Part shown: positions 1 to 3,755 of the stretch, piece by piece | How the letters are laid out: the number at the start of each line of letters is the position of its first letter | Position numbering within the stretch: the stretch's first letter is position 1 | Assembly: GCA_020073005.1 (NCBI GenBank) | Contig: JAIQFX010000018.1 | Location: 1 to 55,000, forward strand | Reading direction: 5' to 3' | From: Terriglobia bacterium | Lineage (GTDB): Bacteria; Acidobacteriota; Vicinamibacteria; Vicinamibacterales; CAVVIG01 | Length of the DNA stretch: 55,000 nucleotides | Made by a program: the position numbers and the translations under genes | Notes under the pieces: model-generated | Seen by the model: only the letters and a program-made list of their open reading frames with translations | Told to the model about the DNA's origin: nothing | The model's database searches: none

Positions 1-57
1 CGGAGCTGGCGCACCAAGGTCCAGACCGACTTGCGTACGGAGGACGGCACGAAGTAA
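1..57 (+). CDS. 3' end of an unidentified gene (partial)
   Basis: An open frame runs in from the left edge and stops at a TAA. Only 18 residues are visible, ending in DLRTEDGTK. This is too little to assign a family. It is followed within 30 bases by two direct repeats, so it could be the last gene of an insertion element whose end is formed by those repeats; that is inference only. Confidence 0.3.
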   Translation, partial: RSWRTKVQTDLRTEDGTK

Positions 58-85
58 AACCTCACCAGTCTCGGCCGTCGCTGAA

Positions 86-529
86 ATGTCGGTTTTGCGG
101 TGTCCACGAATTGTCGGTTTTCACCTGTCCGCCGAGGACAAGGCCAAGGTCCTTGAAGCAAAGGCGCGCCTGCTTCTCGATGCGATTGTCGATGTCGTCA
201 CCAAGGACGTCGCGGACTACTCGGAGCGATTCAAGGGCGACCCGACGCGCAAGGTGGATTTCAACGCGAAGCCCTCCGGCGGCTTCTCCCTATATAAGTC
301 GCACTATCCTGCCGCGAGTCTGGAATGTACGTTGGAGTACGGCAACACTCAGATCAAGGCCTTGTACGCTTTCCGAAACGGCGAAATGTCAGAGGCCATT
401 ACTCGACCCGTGCTTTTGGCGCTTGAAGTCGATGTCAACGACAACGTTTTCGTGCGTGCGTCAGATCGGAATCTGACGACTACGGCGGATGTGTCGCGGT
501 ACTTGATCGAAAAGGTGCTGTTCGCCTAG
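86..529 (+). CDS. Hypothetical protein, probably 5'-truncated
   Basis: Open frame of 147 residues with no family I recognise. The first roughly 15 codons are read from the direct-repeat pair at 87-130, and the host-like protein sequence appears to begin around LSAEDKAKVLEAKAR. No good internal start is visible before residue 100. The simplest reading is a gene that lost its 5' end to a mobile-element insertion and kept an accidental start. The body mixes helix-rich and beta-like segments, with no signal peptide or membrane segment. Its stop overlaps the stop of the convergent small gene by four bases. Whether it is expressed is unknown. Confidence 0.45.
   Translation: MSVLRCPRIVGFHLSAEDKAKVLEAKARLLLDAIVDVVTKDVADYSERFKGDPTRKVDFNAKPSGGFSLYKSHYPAASLECTLEYGNTQIKALYAFRNGEMSEAITRPVLLALEVDVNDNVFVRASDRNLTTTADVSRYLIEKVLFA
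87..130. repeat. Two direct 19-bp repeats, possible mobile-element end
   Basis: TGTCGGTTTTGCGGTGTCC is followed 25 bases later (start to start) by TGTCGGTTTTCACCTGTCC; 15 of 19 positions agree. Multiple short direct repeats at a terminus are typical of IS21-type elements. No matching second end is visible because the window starts just upstream. The start codon of the next gene lies at the edge of the first copy, which suggests that gene was cut by the insertion. Confidence 0.4.
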
Positions 530-690
530 TGGGACGAGGGACGAGGATGGTGTACCGGCTTCGCTCGCTGCTGGCGTAATTCTTCGCGTTCCTCTTGATA
601 CTTCTGTTCTTCCTTGTCGATCTCACGCTTCGGCACGCGCACCAATTTGGTGAGTAGCTCGGTGAACGGAGCCTTCGGACGGTCAGACAT
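526..690 (-). CDS. Small charged protein coupled to the RelE-like gene
   Basis: A 54-residue protein beginning MSDRPKAPFTELLTKL and ending in PRPSSH. Its ATG overlaps the TGA of the upstream RelE-like gene by one base (TGATG), so translation is probably coupled. The middle is a strongly charged helix (KREIDKEEQKYQEEREELR) that could form a coiled coil. I know no named family for it. Its position as third gene of a toxin-antitoxin-like module suggests a role with that module, for example as an accessory or additional antitoxin, but this is inference. It could also be a small unrelated gene. Confidence 0.55.
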   Translation of the reverse strand: MSDRPKAPFTELLTKLVRVPKREIDKEEQKYQEEREELRQQRAKPVHHPRPSSH

Positions 691-977
691 CAATCCTCGT
701 CGTCCTGGTCAAGATACAGCAGATCGACGTGGTGACTGTCACGAATCTCGAACCACACCTGTAAGCGCGGTTTCACCTTGCCGCCTGATCGGACCAAGTC
801 AGTCTTGGCGAGCCGCAACCGCTTGAAGCCTTCAACCACTGGCCATTCTTCAGCGCGGAGGGTGAGCGACCACATGATGCCGCGCAGCCGTTCATCCGTC
901 TCCTGTGCGCCGAGCTTCTCGAGCTGATCGAGATAGTCTTCGCTCTCGATGAGTTCGCGCAGGATTGGCTTGGACAA
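690..977 (-). CDS. RelE/ParE-like putative toxin
   Basis: A 95-residue protein starting at a TTG, 24 bases after the stop of the Panacea-domain gene and in the same frame. The C-terminal half reads FKRLRLAKTDLVRSGGKVKP then RLQVWFEIRD and LLYLDQDD, a strand pattern like the RelE/ParE toxin core, where a basic central strand precedes two hydrophobic strands. The N-terminus is helical and acidic. RelE-type toxins cleave mRNA at the ribosome and ParE types poison gyrase; the sequence does not decide between them. No strong ribosome-binding site is seen before the TTG, so coupling to the upstream gene is likely. Identification rests on pattern and context. Confidence 0.5.
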   Translation of the reverse strand: MSKPILRELIESEDYLDQLEKLGAQETDERLRGIMWSLTLRAEEWPVVEGFKRLRLAKTDLVRSGGKVKPRLQVWFEIRDSHHVDLLYLDQDDED

Positions 978-1001
978 AGCGGCACCGAGCGATGAGGCGC
1001 G

Positions 1002-1592
1002 CTAGGCTTCTTCCCACTTGAACTTGCGATTCAGTTCGTGGGTCCGCGCAATCTCAGCAGCCGTAGGAGGCTGATCAGAGAGGAACGCGGCTTCGTATGG
1101 AATCGAGGCGCCATCTTCTCCGGCAACGCGCCATGCGATGCCGTGCGAGAAGTCGCTGACCTGTTGGCCCGTCGCCTTCCACATGATGTTGATCACTTCA
1201 TCGACCAGCGCAATGTCACTCGCGCTGAGCACGTTGAGATTGGGTTCGCGGAGCGGCACATACCGATGCTCAGCGAACTTGCCAGCAGGAACGATCTGCT
1301 TAGCGAGGTCGCCGCGTTCCTGCATCTGCTCAAGAACTGGCTTCATCTTCCGCGGCACTGGCCCATTCTTCTGGCGCATGTACTCCACACCAGTGATCGG
1401 CTTGCCACGTCGGACAAACGCCGTGAAGTCAGCAAACGCGATGATCTTGTTGAGCTTGATCGCGCCGAAGTGTTCGGCGTCCGCACAACGCGACGTGACA
1501 TAGAGCACGAGTTCACGCAGACGGGCGACGGCCGTCCTCGTGTCGTCGGTGCTATACGTCAGTTCAGGAAGTGCGGGTTTTTTCTTCGCCAT
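1002..1592 (-). CDS. Panacea-domain (DUF4065/SocA-like) protein, putative antitoxin
   Basis: A 196-residue protein with the Panacea signature: IKLNKIIAFADF near residue 45, then RRGKPITGVEYMRQKNGPVPRK around residues 60-80. This domain is known from GepA/SocA-like proteins and serves as a promiscuous antitoxin that neutralises unrelated toxins encoded beside it. The ATG is preceded by a good AAGGGG ribosome-binding site. It is the first gene of a leftward three-gene unit with a RelE-like protein and a small charged protein, so the antitoxin-first order fits. The N-terminal 25 residues (KKKPALPEL...) may be a short partner-binding extension. Family membership is fairly sure; the antitoxin role is inferred from context. 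Confidence 0.75.
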   Translation of the reverse strand: MAKKKPALPELTYSTDDTRTAVARLRELVLYVTSRCADAEHFGAIKLNKIIAFADFTAFVRRGKPITGVEYMRQKNGPVPRKMKPVLEQMQERGDLAKQIVPAGKFAEHRYVPLREPNLNVLSASDIALVDEVINIMWKATGQQVSDFSHGIAWRVAGEDGASIPYEAAFLSDQPPTAAEIARTHELNRKFKWEEA

Positions 1593-1679: not shown

Positions 1680-2786
1680 GGGTAAGAAATTTCAACAGAT
1701 GGTGTACGAAGCGTGCAGGGCCACTACTTATGGCCACGGCACTGGCGCGGCTTTCAGGCCGCGCTCTGGGCGTCTGCCTTGCCGATGAGGTCTTTGTAGG
1801 TGAGGCGACGGCCAATCACGCGCTGCGCCATCTCCTCGAAGCGTGCGCGATCTGTCTGCTTGCGCGTGTTGAATCGGAACGCCTGTTCATCGAGATACCG
1901 GAACAAGTGGAAGGGTTCGACGCTGACGTACGTGCCGCGCAGACCGCGCTTGAGCAACGACCAGAAGTTCTCACACCCGTTCGTGTGAATCTGGCCGTCA
2001 ACGTACTTCTCCGCGTGGTCAATGACTTGATGCACGTAGGCCGCGCCGAGGCGGTTGTAGGAATTATTAGCGTCCGTGTAGACCGTCGTTGCTGGTCCCG
2101 GTTCAACGTTGGCCTCGACGCGCGGTTGGAGCGTGTGACGCTTCGTGTCGGCGACGACTTCCAATCGGATCGCGCTGTGCCCGTCCTTCCCGTGACGCTG
2201 TAGCAAGCCCATCACTGCAATCTTCCCGACGATGCCGCCGCGCTTAAGGCCAATCGTTTTCTTGCGACGGTCGGCGTGCATGAAACGCGCACGGCCACCG
2301 ATGAACGTTTCGTCAACTTCGACTTCCCCGGTCAGCTTGCCTTGAAGAAAACTCCGGGTCTGCATGGCGAGGCGGATTCTGTGGAGCATGAACCACGCGG
2401 TCTTCTGCGTCACGCCGATGGACCGTTCGAGTTCATACGAGCTGATGCCGTTCTTCGCGGACGAAATGAGCCAGATGGCGACGAACCACTTGTCGAGCTT
2501 GATCGGGCTGTCCTCGAAGATCGTGCCGACCTTCGCCGAAAACTGCCGCTTGGGATGCTTGCCCTTGCACTGCCATCGGCGTTGCGTGGCGAGGTAGCCA
2601 ACGTCCTTCCGGCCGCACGTCGGACACTCGACGCCATCAGGCCATCGAGCGGCGACTAGTTCCGCTTGGCAGACGTCGAGATCGGCGTAGTGCCGGACGG
2701 CCTCTTGGAGGGTTTGGGGCGAAGCGTTCGTTGCCATGCCCTTAAGATAGGCCAACCAGCCCGATTAGTCAAGTATGTTATTACCC
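1680..2786 (-). mobile_element. IS1595-type insertion sequence (ends uncertain)
   Basis: The element carries one transposase gene. Possible inverted ends are GGGTAAGAAATTTC reading right from 1680 and GGGTAATAACATAC reading left from 2786 (10 of 14 agree). A second inverted match, TACTTGAC, occurs at 1671-1678 and 2775-2768. I could not find a convincing 8-bp target duplication for either pair, so the ends are provisional. Confidence 0.45.
1754..2737 (-). CDS. IS1595-family (ISXO2-like) transposase
   Basis: Transposase of about 327 residues. The N-terminus has an IS1595-type zinc ribbon, CPTCG near residue 40 and a second ligand site around WQCKG. It is followed by KLDKWFVAIWL and a helix-turn-helix-like stretch. 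The DDE-type catalytic core starts with GEVEVDETFIGG, continues with VYTDANNSYN and ends in TNGCENFWSLLKRGLRGTY. The start is taken at MATNASPQTL, which resembles family N-termini; a TTG six codons earlier is the alternative. The stop codon sits in the loop of a hairpin (stems 1745-1751 and 1758-1764). The gene looks intact. It separates the Panacea module from the chromosomal LigD gene. Confidence 0.85.
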   Translation of the reverse strand: MATNASPQTLQEAVRHYADLDVCQAELVAARWPDGVECPTCGRKDVGYLATQRRWQCKGKHPKRQFSAKVGTIFEDSPIKLDKWFVAIWLISSAKNGISSYELERSIGVTQKTAWFMLHRIRLAMQTRSFLQGKLTGEVEVDETFIGGRARFMHADRRKKTIGLKRGGIVGKIAVMGLLQRHGKDGHSAIRLEVVADTKRHTLQPRVEANVEPGPATTVYTDANNSYNRLGAAYVHQVIDHAEKYVDGQIHTNGCENFWSLLKRGLRGTYVSVEPFHLFRYLDEQAFRFNTRKQTDRARFEEMAQRVIGRRLTYKDLIGKADAQSAA

Positions 2787-2825: not shown

Positions 2826-3755
2826 CTAGACGTACCGGGCGAGGTCGAACCGTCCGCGGACCATCAGGAGCGGCCTCCACAAGTCGCCGCGGCGCGCGAT
2901 CCGGCCCGGCGCGCTGGTCATCGTGAAATCCTCGGTCGTCACGCCGCGCGCCACTTCGGTCCACGTGACCGGCATCGACACCGTCGCCTCCGGCCGCGGG
3001 CGCACCGAGTAGACCGACGCGAGCGTGCGTCCCCACGCGTTCTGGTTGTAGTCGACGAGCACGCGGCCCCGCGGACGCCTGGCCACGCGGTACTCGACGG
3101 TCATCAGCGCCGGATGCCGCGCGGCCAGCTCGTGCGCGAGCGCTTTGGCGAACGTCCAGACCTGCTTCTGCCCCGGCCCGCGGACGATCGGCACGTAGAT
3201 GTGCAGACCCTTGGACCCGGTCGTCTTCACGAGCGACGGCATCTTCAGCGCGTCGAGCGCCTCGTGCACCACCAGCGCGGCTTCGCGCACGCGCTCGAAC
3301 CCCGCGCCCGGACCGGGATCGAGATCGAAGTGCACGTAATCCGGCCGGTCGACGTCGTCGCAGCGCGCGTACCACTGATTGAGATCGATGCATCCCAGGT
3401 TGACGACCCACAGCAGCGCGGCGCGATCCTGAATCATCGGAAAGTCGATGACGCCCGCCGACCCGTGATCGATCGAACAGATCTCGATCCACGACGGCCG
3501 GGGCGACGGCGCGCGCTTCATGAAGAAGAACTCGCCGCTCGCGCCGTGCGGATAGCGCTTCATCACCATCGCGCGATCGCGCAGGTGCGGCAGGAGCACG
3601 CCGGCCACGGTCGCGTAGTACTGGAGAAGGTCGCCCTTGGTCAGACCGAGGCGGGACCAGAAGATCTTGCGGAGGTTCGTCAGGCGCACTTCCTTGCCGT
3701 CGACGTCGAGAATCGCGTGGTCTTGATCGCGGGGGATGACGAGAGGCGTTGGCAT
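2826..3755 (-). CDS. Stand-alone LigD polymerase-domain protein
   Basis: A 309-residue primase-polymerase of the LigD PolDom type, which adds ribonucleotides or deoxynucleotides at broken DNA ends during non-homologous end joining. Family motifs are all present: GEFFFMKRAP, DFPMIQDRAALLW, HFDLDPGPG with the two catalytic aspartates, KTTGSKGLHIYVPI, and VLVDYNQNAWG with the third aspartate before YSVRPRP. There is no ligase or phosphoesterase domain, and the length equals one PolDom alone. No ku gene is in the window. The gene ends about 40 bases from the IS end. Whether it acts in end joining or another gap-filling role cannot be told from here. Confidence 0.85.
   Translation of the reverse strand: MPTPLVIPRDQDHAILDVDGKEVRLTNLRKIFWSRLGLTKGDLLQYYATVAGVLLPHLRDRAMVMKRYPHGASGEFFFMKRAPSPRPSWIEICSIDHGSAGVIDFPMIQDRAALLWVVNLGCIDLNQWYARCDDVDRPDYVHFDLDPGPGAGFERVREAALVVHEALDALKMPSLVKTTGSKGLHIYVPIVRGPGQKQVWTFAKALAHELAARHPALMTVEYRVARRPRGRVLVDYNQNAWGRTLASVYSVRPRPEATVSMPVTWTEVARGVTTEDFTMTSAPGRIARRGDLWRPLLMVRGRFDLARYV

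What the first reader, a model, noticed from the sequence alone, without database searches (positions are those of the whole stretch)
526..1592. Three-gene Panacea module with a RelE-like gene and a small coupled gene
A Panacea-domain protein (known as a promiscuous antitoxin domain) is followed by a RelE-like small protein and then a 54-residue charged protein overlapping its stop by one base. Panacea modules are usually described as two genes; a coupled third gene could be a second antitoxin, a chaperone or a regulator. It lies beside an IS element, as expected of mobile defence or addiction modules.
Basis: partly seen in the sequence, partly recalled or inferred. Interest (0 to 1): 0.62.

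Follow-up and report, generated by a model that had tools for sequence, protein, structure and literature searches.

The report
Toxin-antitoxin cargo of IS1595 transposon
The three genes are a two-gene toxin-antitoxin pair plus a small gene that belongs not to the pair but to the transposon (an IS1595-family jumping element) that carries all of them, one of a group of such transposons in Acidobacteriota whose cargo is rich in defence-like genes.

Summary
The pair is real: 37 of 39 related Panacea genes across several phyla are followed directly by a homologue of gene 2, whose model matches RelE toxins (Z 11.7). The reading 'three-gene TA module' is not supported. Gene 3 is missing from nearly all other pairs; a small third gene appears almost only where an IS1595 transposase is near (5 of 6 versus 0 of 36). 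Its family, absent from Pfam and NCBIfam, follows many unrelated genes, and 25 of 32 genome-wide copies lie within 2 kb of an IS1595 transposase, mostly inside units bounded by inverted repeats and 8-bp target duplications. The 'IS beside' the module is the transposase of the transposon that contains it: left end and duplication at 2768-2793; right end, with the same duplication, on another contig of this genome. Sister elements carry restriction-modification, AIPR, Schlafen-like, DUF3800 or the same Panacea pair. So: a type II TA pair as transposon cargo, plus an undescribed small transposon-linked protein of unknown function.

The parts
1002..1592 (-). Panacea-domain (SocA/DUF4065) antitoxin PanA, 196 aa
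   Evidence: PF13274 E 7.7e-14; 40 relatives; GPV motif
690..977 (-). RelE-fold toxin, 95 aa, TTG start, 24 nt after the PanA stop
   Evidence: homologue follows 37 of 39 related PanA genes; AF2 model pLDDT 93; RelBE2 3g5o Z 11.7, rmsd 1.8 over 80 residues
526..690 (-). small basic 'VPK' protein, 54 aa, transposon-linked gene, TGATG overlap with the toxin gene
   Evidence: family in IS1595 elements; absent from Pfam and NCBIfam
1754..2755 (-). IS1595-family transposase, 333 aa (DDE_Tnp_IS1595 + zinc ribbon)
   Evidence: PF12762 1.6e-36, PF12760 8.8e-8; NF033547 6.6e-55
2768..2785 (-). left terminal inverted repeat GGTAATAACATACTTGAC (similarity to the right end extends about 45 bp inwards)
   Evidence: matches ends of elements C90 and C136 and the right end on contig C136
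2786..2793 (.). 8-bp target-site duplication CATAAAGT; the second copy is at G000:C136:52157-52164
131..529 (+). 3' part of convergent cargo gene X (listed as ORF 86-529), interrupted by a nested IS; the 5' part probably lies at the end of contig C136 (L110 about 1557-1715)
1..130 (.). end of a nested, different insertion sequence (TGTCGGTTTT repeats at 83-130), which splits the transposon over two contigs
   Evidence: repeat D7; related repeats at the end of C136

Best explanation
A type II toxin-antitoxin pair (Panacea antitoxin + RelE-fold toxin) is the cargo of an IS1595-family transposon. Shown: the transposase, cargo genes and small third gene lie between two inverted repeats with an identical 8-bp target duplication (the right end on another contig); the same layout (transposase, exchangeable cargo, small basic 'VPK' protein, often a convergent second cargo gene) recurs in the same genome and in other Acidobacteriota; the Panacea pair recurs as cargo in two further bounded elements (L048, L064). 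Inferred: PanA binds and silences the toxin, which would otherwise block growth; loss of the element would free the toxin, so the pair would stabilise the transposon (addiction) or act against phage. The third gene is not part of the TA switch; its small basic protein probably binds nucleic acid and serves the transposon or the expression of its cargo.
For: Pair. Ends and target duplication of the window's element. Two sister elements in the same genome with the same layout. Elements elsewhere: 12 of 13 loci that hold the small gene, plus L048 and L064, and 19 of 26 transposases chosen without regard to the small gene, have exact 8-bp duplications and 17-24 of 24 matching repeat bases; all of these are 1.9-4.6 kb, so all hold cargo. 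Small gene: 15 of 24 transposase-selected loci; 25 of 32 genome-wide hits within 2 kb of the transposase; with Panacea pairs a small third gene is found almost only where a transposase is near (Fisher p 7e-6).
Against: The window's right end is on another contig and the join runs through a nested IS that is not assembled, so the unit is inferred, not read through. Seven of 32 small-gene hits have no transposase nearby, and for those examined no bounding repeats were found. L045 and L120 have a transposase and the small gene but no recognisable ends. Growth inhibition, neutralisation and transposition are untested. The fused PanA-toxin model was poor in the toxin part, so binding has no structural support here.
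Confidence: 0.8

Rival explanations
1. A true three-gene TA module in which the small protein is a second antitoxin, chaperone or regulator of the toxin.
For: One-base TGATG overlap suggests co-translation; the small gene is under purifying selection; three-gene Panacea loci are reported as a minority (PMC8832971).
Against: Absent from nearly all other pairs; present after many unrelated cargo genes; tied to the IS1595 transposase.
Confidence: 0.06
2. The small gene is an independent selfish or protective cargo gene that hitchhikes in these elements, not a transposition accessory.
For: Not every IS1595 locus of the sample has a recognisable copy (9 of 24 without), and some copies lie away from transposases.
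Against: It is the one cargo-independent gene shared by elements with different cargo, often abutting the transposase 3' end; C-terminal motifs such as GPKPxSSASGR are shared between elements with different cargo.
Confidence: 0.25
3. Gene 2 is a RelE-fold protein without toxicity.
For: The family has no conserved cluster of basic residues and ends about three residues after the last strand, so the C-terminal residues that canonical RelE uses for cleavage seem to be missing.
Against: Tight pairing with a Panacea antitoxin in 37 of 39 loci; RelE/ParE/HigB structures fill the top of the match lists; ParE-type members also lack RNase residues (established knowledge).
Confidence: 0.15

Closest known systems
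PanAT toxin-antitoxin systems (Kurata et al. 2022, PMC8832971; 2023, PMC10440598)
   Same: Panacea antitoxin with GPV motif followed within 100 nt by a small toxin gene; third genes noted there as accessory and present in a small fraction of genomes
   Different: Here the third gene is explained by the carrying transposon and is shared with non-TA cargo
IS1595 insertion sequence family (PMC8101967; Siguier et al. 2009, not held here)
   Same: DDE_Tnp_IS1595 transposase with zinc ribbon, ends starting with GG, 8-bp target duplication
   Different: 1.9-4.6 kb elements with defence-like and TA cargo and a conserved small basic protein; that some IS1595 elements carry passenger genes is known (recalled from memory), the small protein family was not found in any library searched
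TA modules in Tn3-family transposons (Lima-Mendez et al. 2020, PMC7157771)
   Same: A toxin-antitoxin pair carried by a unit transposon, possibly stabilising it
   Different: Different transposase family; here TA is one of many exchangeable cargoes rather than part of the transposition module

Membership tests
Panacea (PanAT) type II toxin-antitoxin | Panacea/SocA domain in the antitoxin | tested here: met
   PF13274 7.7e-14, 53 bits against a 25.7-bit cut-off; GPV motif
[quoted passage not shown]
   24 nt; 37 of 39 loci
Panacea (PanAT) type II toxin-antitoxin | toxin inhibits growth and PanA neutralises it by binding | not testable with these tools
   needs expression; fused model poor in the toxin part
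RelE/ParE superfamily | RelE fold | tested here: met
   model pLDDT 93; 3g5o_C Z 11.7, rmsd 1.8, 80 residues; the best rows are all RelE/ParE/HigB/YoeB/YafQ-type toxins
RelE/ParE superfamily | catalytic residues of ribosome-dependent RelE RNase | tested here: inconclusive
   no conserved basic set in 29 homologues; residue-by-residue mapping to RelE not made
IS1595-family transposon | DDE_Tnp_IS1595 domain with N-terminal zinc ribbon | tested here: met
   PF12762, PF12760, NF033547
IS1595-family transposon | inverted repeats starting with GG | tested here: met
   left end GGTAATAAC..., sister elements GG at both ends; the window's right end starts GA
IS1595-family transposon | 8-bp target-site duplication | tested here: met
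   CATAAAGT on both sides, right side on another contig; exact duplications in sister elements
Three-gene TA / TA-chaperone module | third gene conserved with the pair | tested here: not met
   VPK relative after 3 of 42 pairs only

The most novel reading that the evidence does not exclude
A group of IS1595-family unit transposons works as a small vehicle for defence genes: an exchangeable cargo slot filled with TA pairs, restriction-modification, AIPR/AbiU-type, Schlafen-like and DUF3800 genes, with an undescribed small basic protein needed for transposition or for control of the cargo.
Probability: 0.4. Interest if true: 0.75.

Novelty: new variant of a known kind. Interest (0 to 1): 0.55.

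Why it matters
It explains why some toxin-antitoxin pairs seem to have a 'third gene': the extra gene can belong to the mobile element rather than to the pair. It gives a simple marker (the small basic protein plus the ends GGTAAYAATATACTTGAC) for finding further transposon-borne cargo, much of it defence-like and much without any known family, in a phylum whose defence genes are little studied. It also makes testable whether a small cargo-independent protein helps an IS transposase move long cargo.

Tried and rejected
Close relatives of gene 2 in viral contigs, plasmids and phages: none; distant DNA matches of the locus in plasmids: none. The right end was first sought inside the window and not found; it turned up on contig C136. 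Bounding repeats around small genes without a nearby transposase: none above background. Fusing PanA and toxin by reading the in-frame TAG as Q to model the pair: a first alignment misplaced the toxin rows, and the second gave a poor toxin part; no interface claimed. The small-protein family matched nothing convincing in Pfam, NCBIfam, PDB sequences or plasmids. A stop-codon readthrough reading of the in-frame TAG between genes 1 and 2 was considered and dropped: only some pairs are in the same frame, others overlap in another frame. Two automatic end calls in the transposase-selected sample (L158, a microsatellite; L170, running along a contig end) were discounted.

Full report
Observation. 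The three ORFs are real and lie on the minus strand: a Panacea gene (1592-1002, 196 aa, PF13274 7.7e-14), a 95-residue protein from a TTG codon at 977, and a 54-residue protein whose ATG shares the last base of the preceding TGA (TGATG, 690). Genes 2 and 3 match no family in Pfam, NCBIfam, PADLOC or PHROGs. The origin is an Acidobacteriota genome: locus L006 (same phylum as the window, contig of 8,901 bases) carries the same genes as L039, contig of 8,901 bases, titled Acidobacteriota.

The pair. A search of GTDB species genomes with the Panacea subfamily gave 40 relatives in Alphaproteobacteria, Acidobacteriota, Chloroflexota, Verrucomicrobia, Firmicutes and others. In 37 of 39 of them a homologue of gene 2 follows directly, by a leave-one-out HMM. 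The AlphaFold2 model of gene 2 from 29 homologues has pLDDT 93.1 and starts E-H-H followed by strands. RelE, ParE, HigB, YoeB and YafQ structures fill the top of the structural match lists; the best is RelBE2 3g5o at Z 11.7, rmsd 1.8 over 80 residues. So the pair is a Panacea/RelE-fold TA system in the sense of Kurata et al. (PMC8832971). The family lacks a conserved basic cluster, and the chain ends about three residues after the last strand, so the target need not be that of RelE.

The third gene is not part of the pair. An HMM of its family, built without Panacea-linked members, finds it after 3 of 42 pairs: window, L045, L048. A second type of small gene follows L033, L064 and L035. A tblastn with the window's transposase finds IS1595 transposases near L045, L048, L064 and L035, as in the window, and otherwise only a fragment in L071. 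The association of a small third gene with the transposase is 5 of 6 against 0 of 36 (Fisher p 7e-6, the L071 fragment not counted).

The third-gene family belongs to transposons. Two further copies in the window's genome lie in IS1595 elements: C90, 2,349 bp, target duplication GAAGTAAG, order transposase, 98-aa gene, small gene, convergent DUF3800; C136, 3,135 bp, duplication GCTTTACC, order transposase, 170-aa gene, small gene, convergent 85-aa and 276-aa genes. In a sample of 297 genomes the small-gene profile has 32 hits at E up to 1e-3; 25 lie within 2 kb of an IS1595 transposase, although only 22 of the 297 genomes have such a transposase at E 1e-60. To avoid choosing loci by the small gene, transposases were also taken by similarity alone (26 in 24 loci). 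Nineteen have exact 8-bp duplications and 17-24 of 24 matching end bases (exact-duplication matches elsewhere in the same scans reached at most 14), all these elements are 1.9-4.6 kb and so hold cargo, and 15 of the 24 loci hold the small gene. dN/dS of 0.11-0.50 in the six gene pairs with measurable dS shows that it is a real, constrained protein.

The window's own element. Its left end GGTAATAACATACTTGAC is at 2785-2768, next to CATAAAGT at 2786-2793. The right end is not in the window, which begins at a contig edge. A pattern search for CATAAAGT followed by the end sequence, with up to three mismatches, gives one match in the whole genome, at C136:52157-52182, 343 bases from that contig's end, and none for the reversed control. 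The similarity of the two ends continues for about 45 bp. Both contig edges show the TGTCGGTTTT-type repeats of another insertion sequence, which apparently sits inside convergent gene X and broke the assembly.

Cargo. Pfam and PADLOC scans of cargo proteins found DUF3800 (in L107, L113, L156, L168 and L169), an N6/N4 methylase fused to an Mrr nuclease (L119), a C5 methylase (L048, in the same element as a Panacea pair), AIPR (L157), Schlafen AlbA_2 (L111), DUF4145 (L120), a weak HNH match (L161) and, in PADLOC, one AbiU-type hit at 6.5e-155 and type II/III methyltransferases; many cargo proteins match nothing. The enrichment for defence is an impression; it was not tested against a background.

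Mechanism. Shown: pair, fold, co-location, element ends, conservation of layout. Inferred: PanA binds and silences the toxin; the pair stabilises the element or defends against phage; the small basic protein (pI 9.3-11.3) binds nucleic acid and helps the transposon or controls its cargo. The last step is the weakest.

Known and new. PanAT systems, IS1595 elements with 8-bp duplications (PMC8101967) and TA pairs in transposons (Tn3 family, PMC7157771) are known; passenger genes in IS1595 elements are known to me from Siguier et al. 2009, which is not held. New here, as far as the libraries searched show, is the small-protein family, its tie to cargo-bearing IS1595 elements, and the recurrent carriage of a Panacea/RelE-fold pair by them.

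Noticed in passing
L048:712-5102: A bounded IS1595 element (24 of 24 end bases, duplication CTAATTTG) carries a C5 DNA methylase, a 339-aa protein with no family (possibly its restriction partner), a Panacea/RelE-like pair and the small gene together; its transposase reading frame appears broken near the end.
   Followed up: partly
L064:4825-4962, L033, L035, L211-L214: A second type of small protein (AARELECD...KKIAK) fills the third-gene place in alphaproteobacterial Panacea loci and elsewhere lies near PIN-like and ATPase-like genes; it may be a distant relative of the VPK family.
   Followed up: partly
window 1-130 and G000:C136 end (L110 about 1715-1843): Ends of an unidentified insertion sequence with repeated TGTCGGTTTT tips, inserted in gene X and splitting the transposon over two contigs.
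   Followed up: partly
window 1002-1004; L033, L036, L041, L062: In several pairs the Panacea stop codon is TAG and the toxin follows in the same reading frame; probably chance.
   Followed up: no
L112, L115, L125 (G084, G121): Copies of the small gene with no transposase or recognisable ends nearby: next to a DUF3800-like gene (L115) and a PIN-like gene (L125), and L112 with no clear neighbour; perhaps remnants or other carriers.
   Followed up: partly
window 2826-3755, minus strand: A gene resembling the LigD-type DNA polymerase/primase ends 33 bp from the transposon's target duplication and is left intact by the insertion (recognised by eye, not searched).
   Followed up: no
L109 (G000:C89:35766-36665): A fourth, more distant IS1595 transposase (39% identity) of the genome, with no recognisable ends in the scan.
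   Followed up: no
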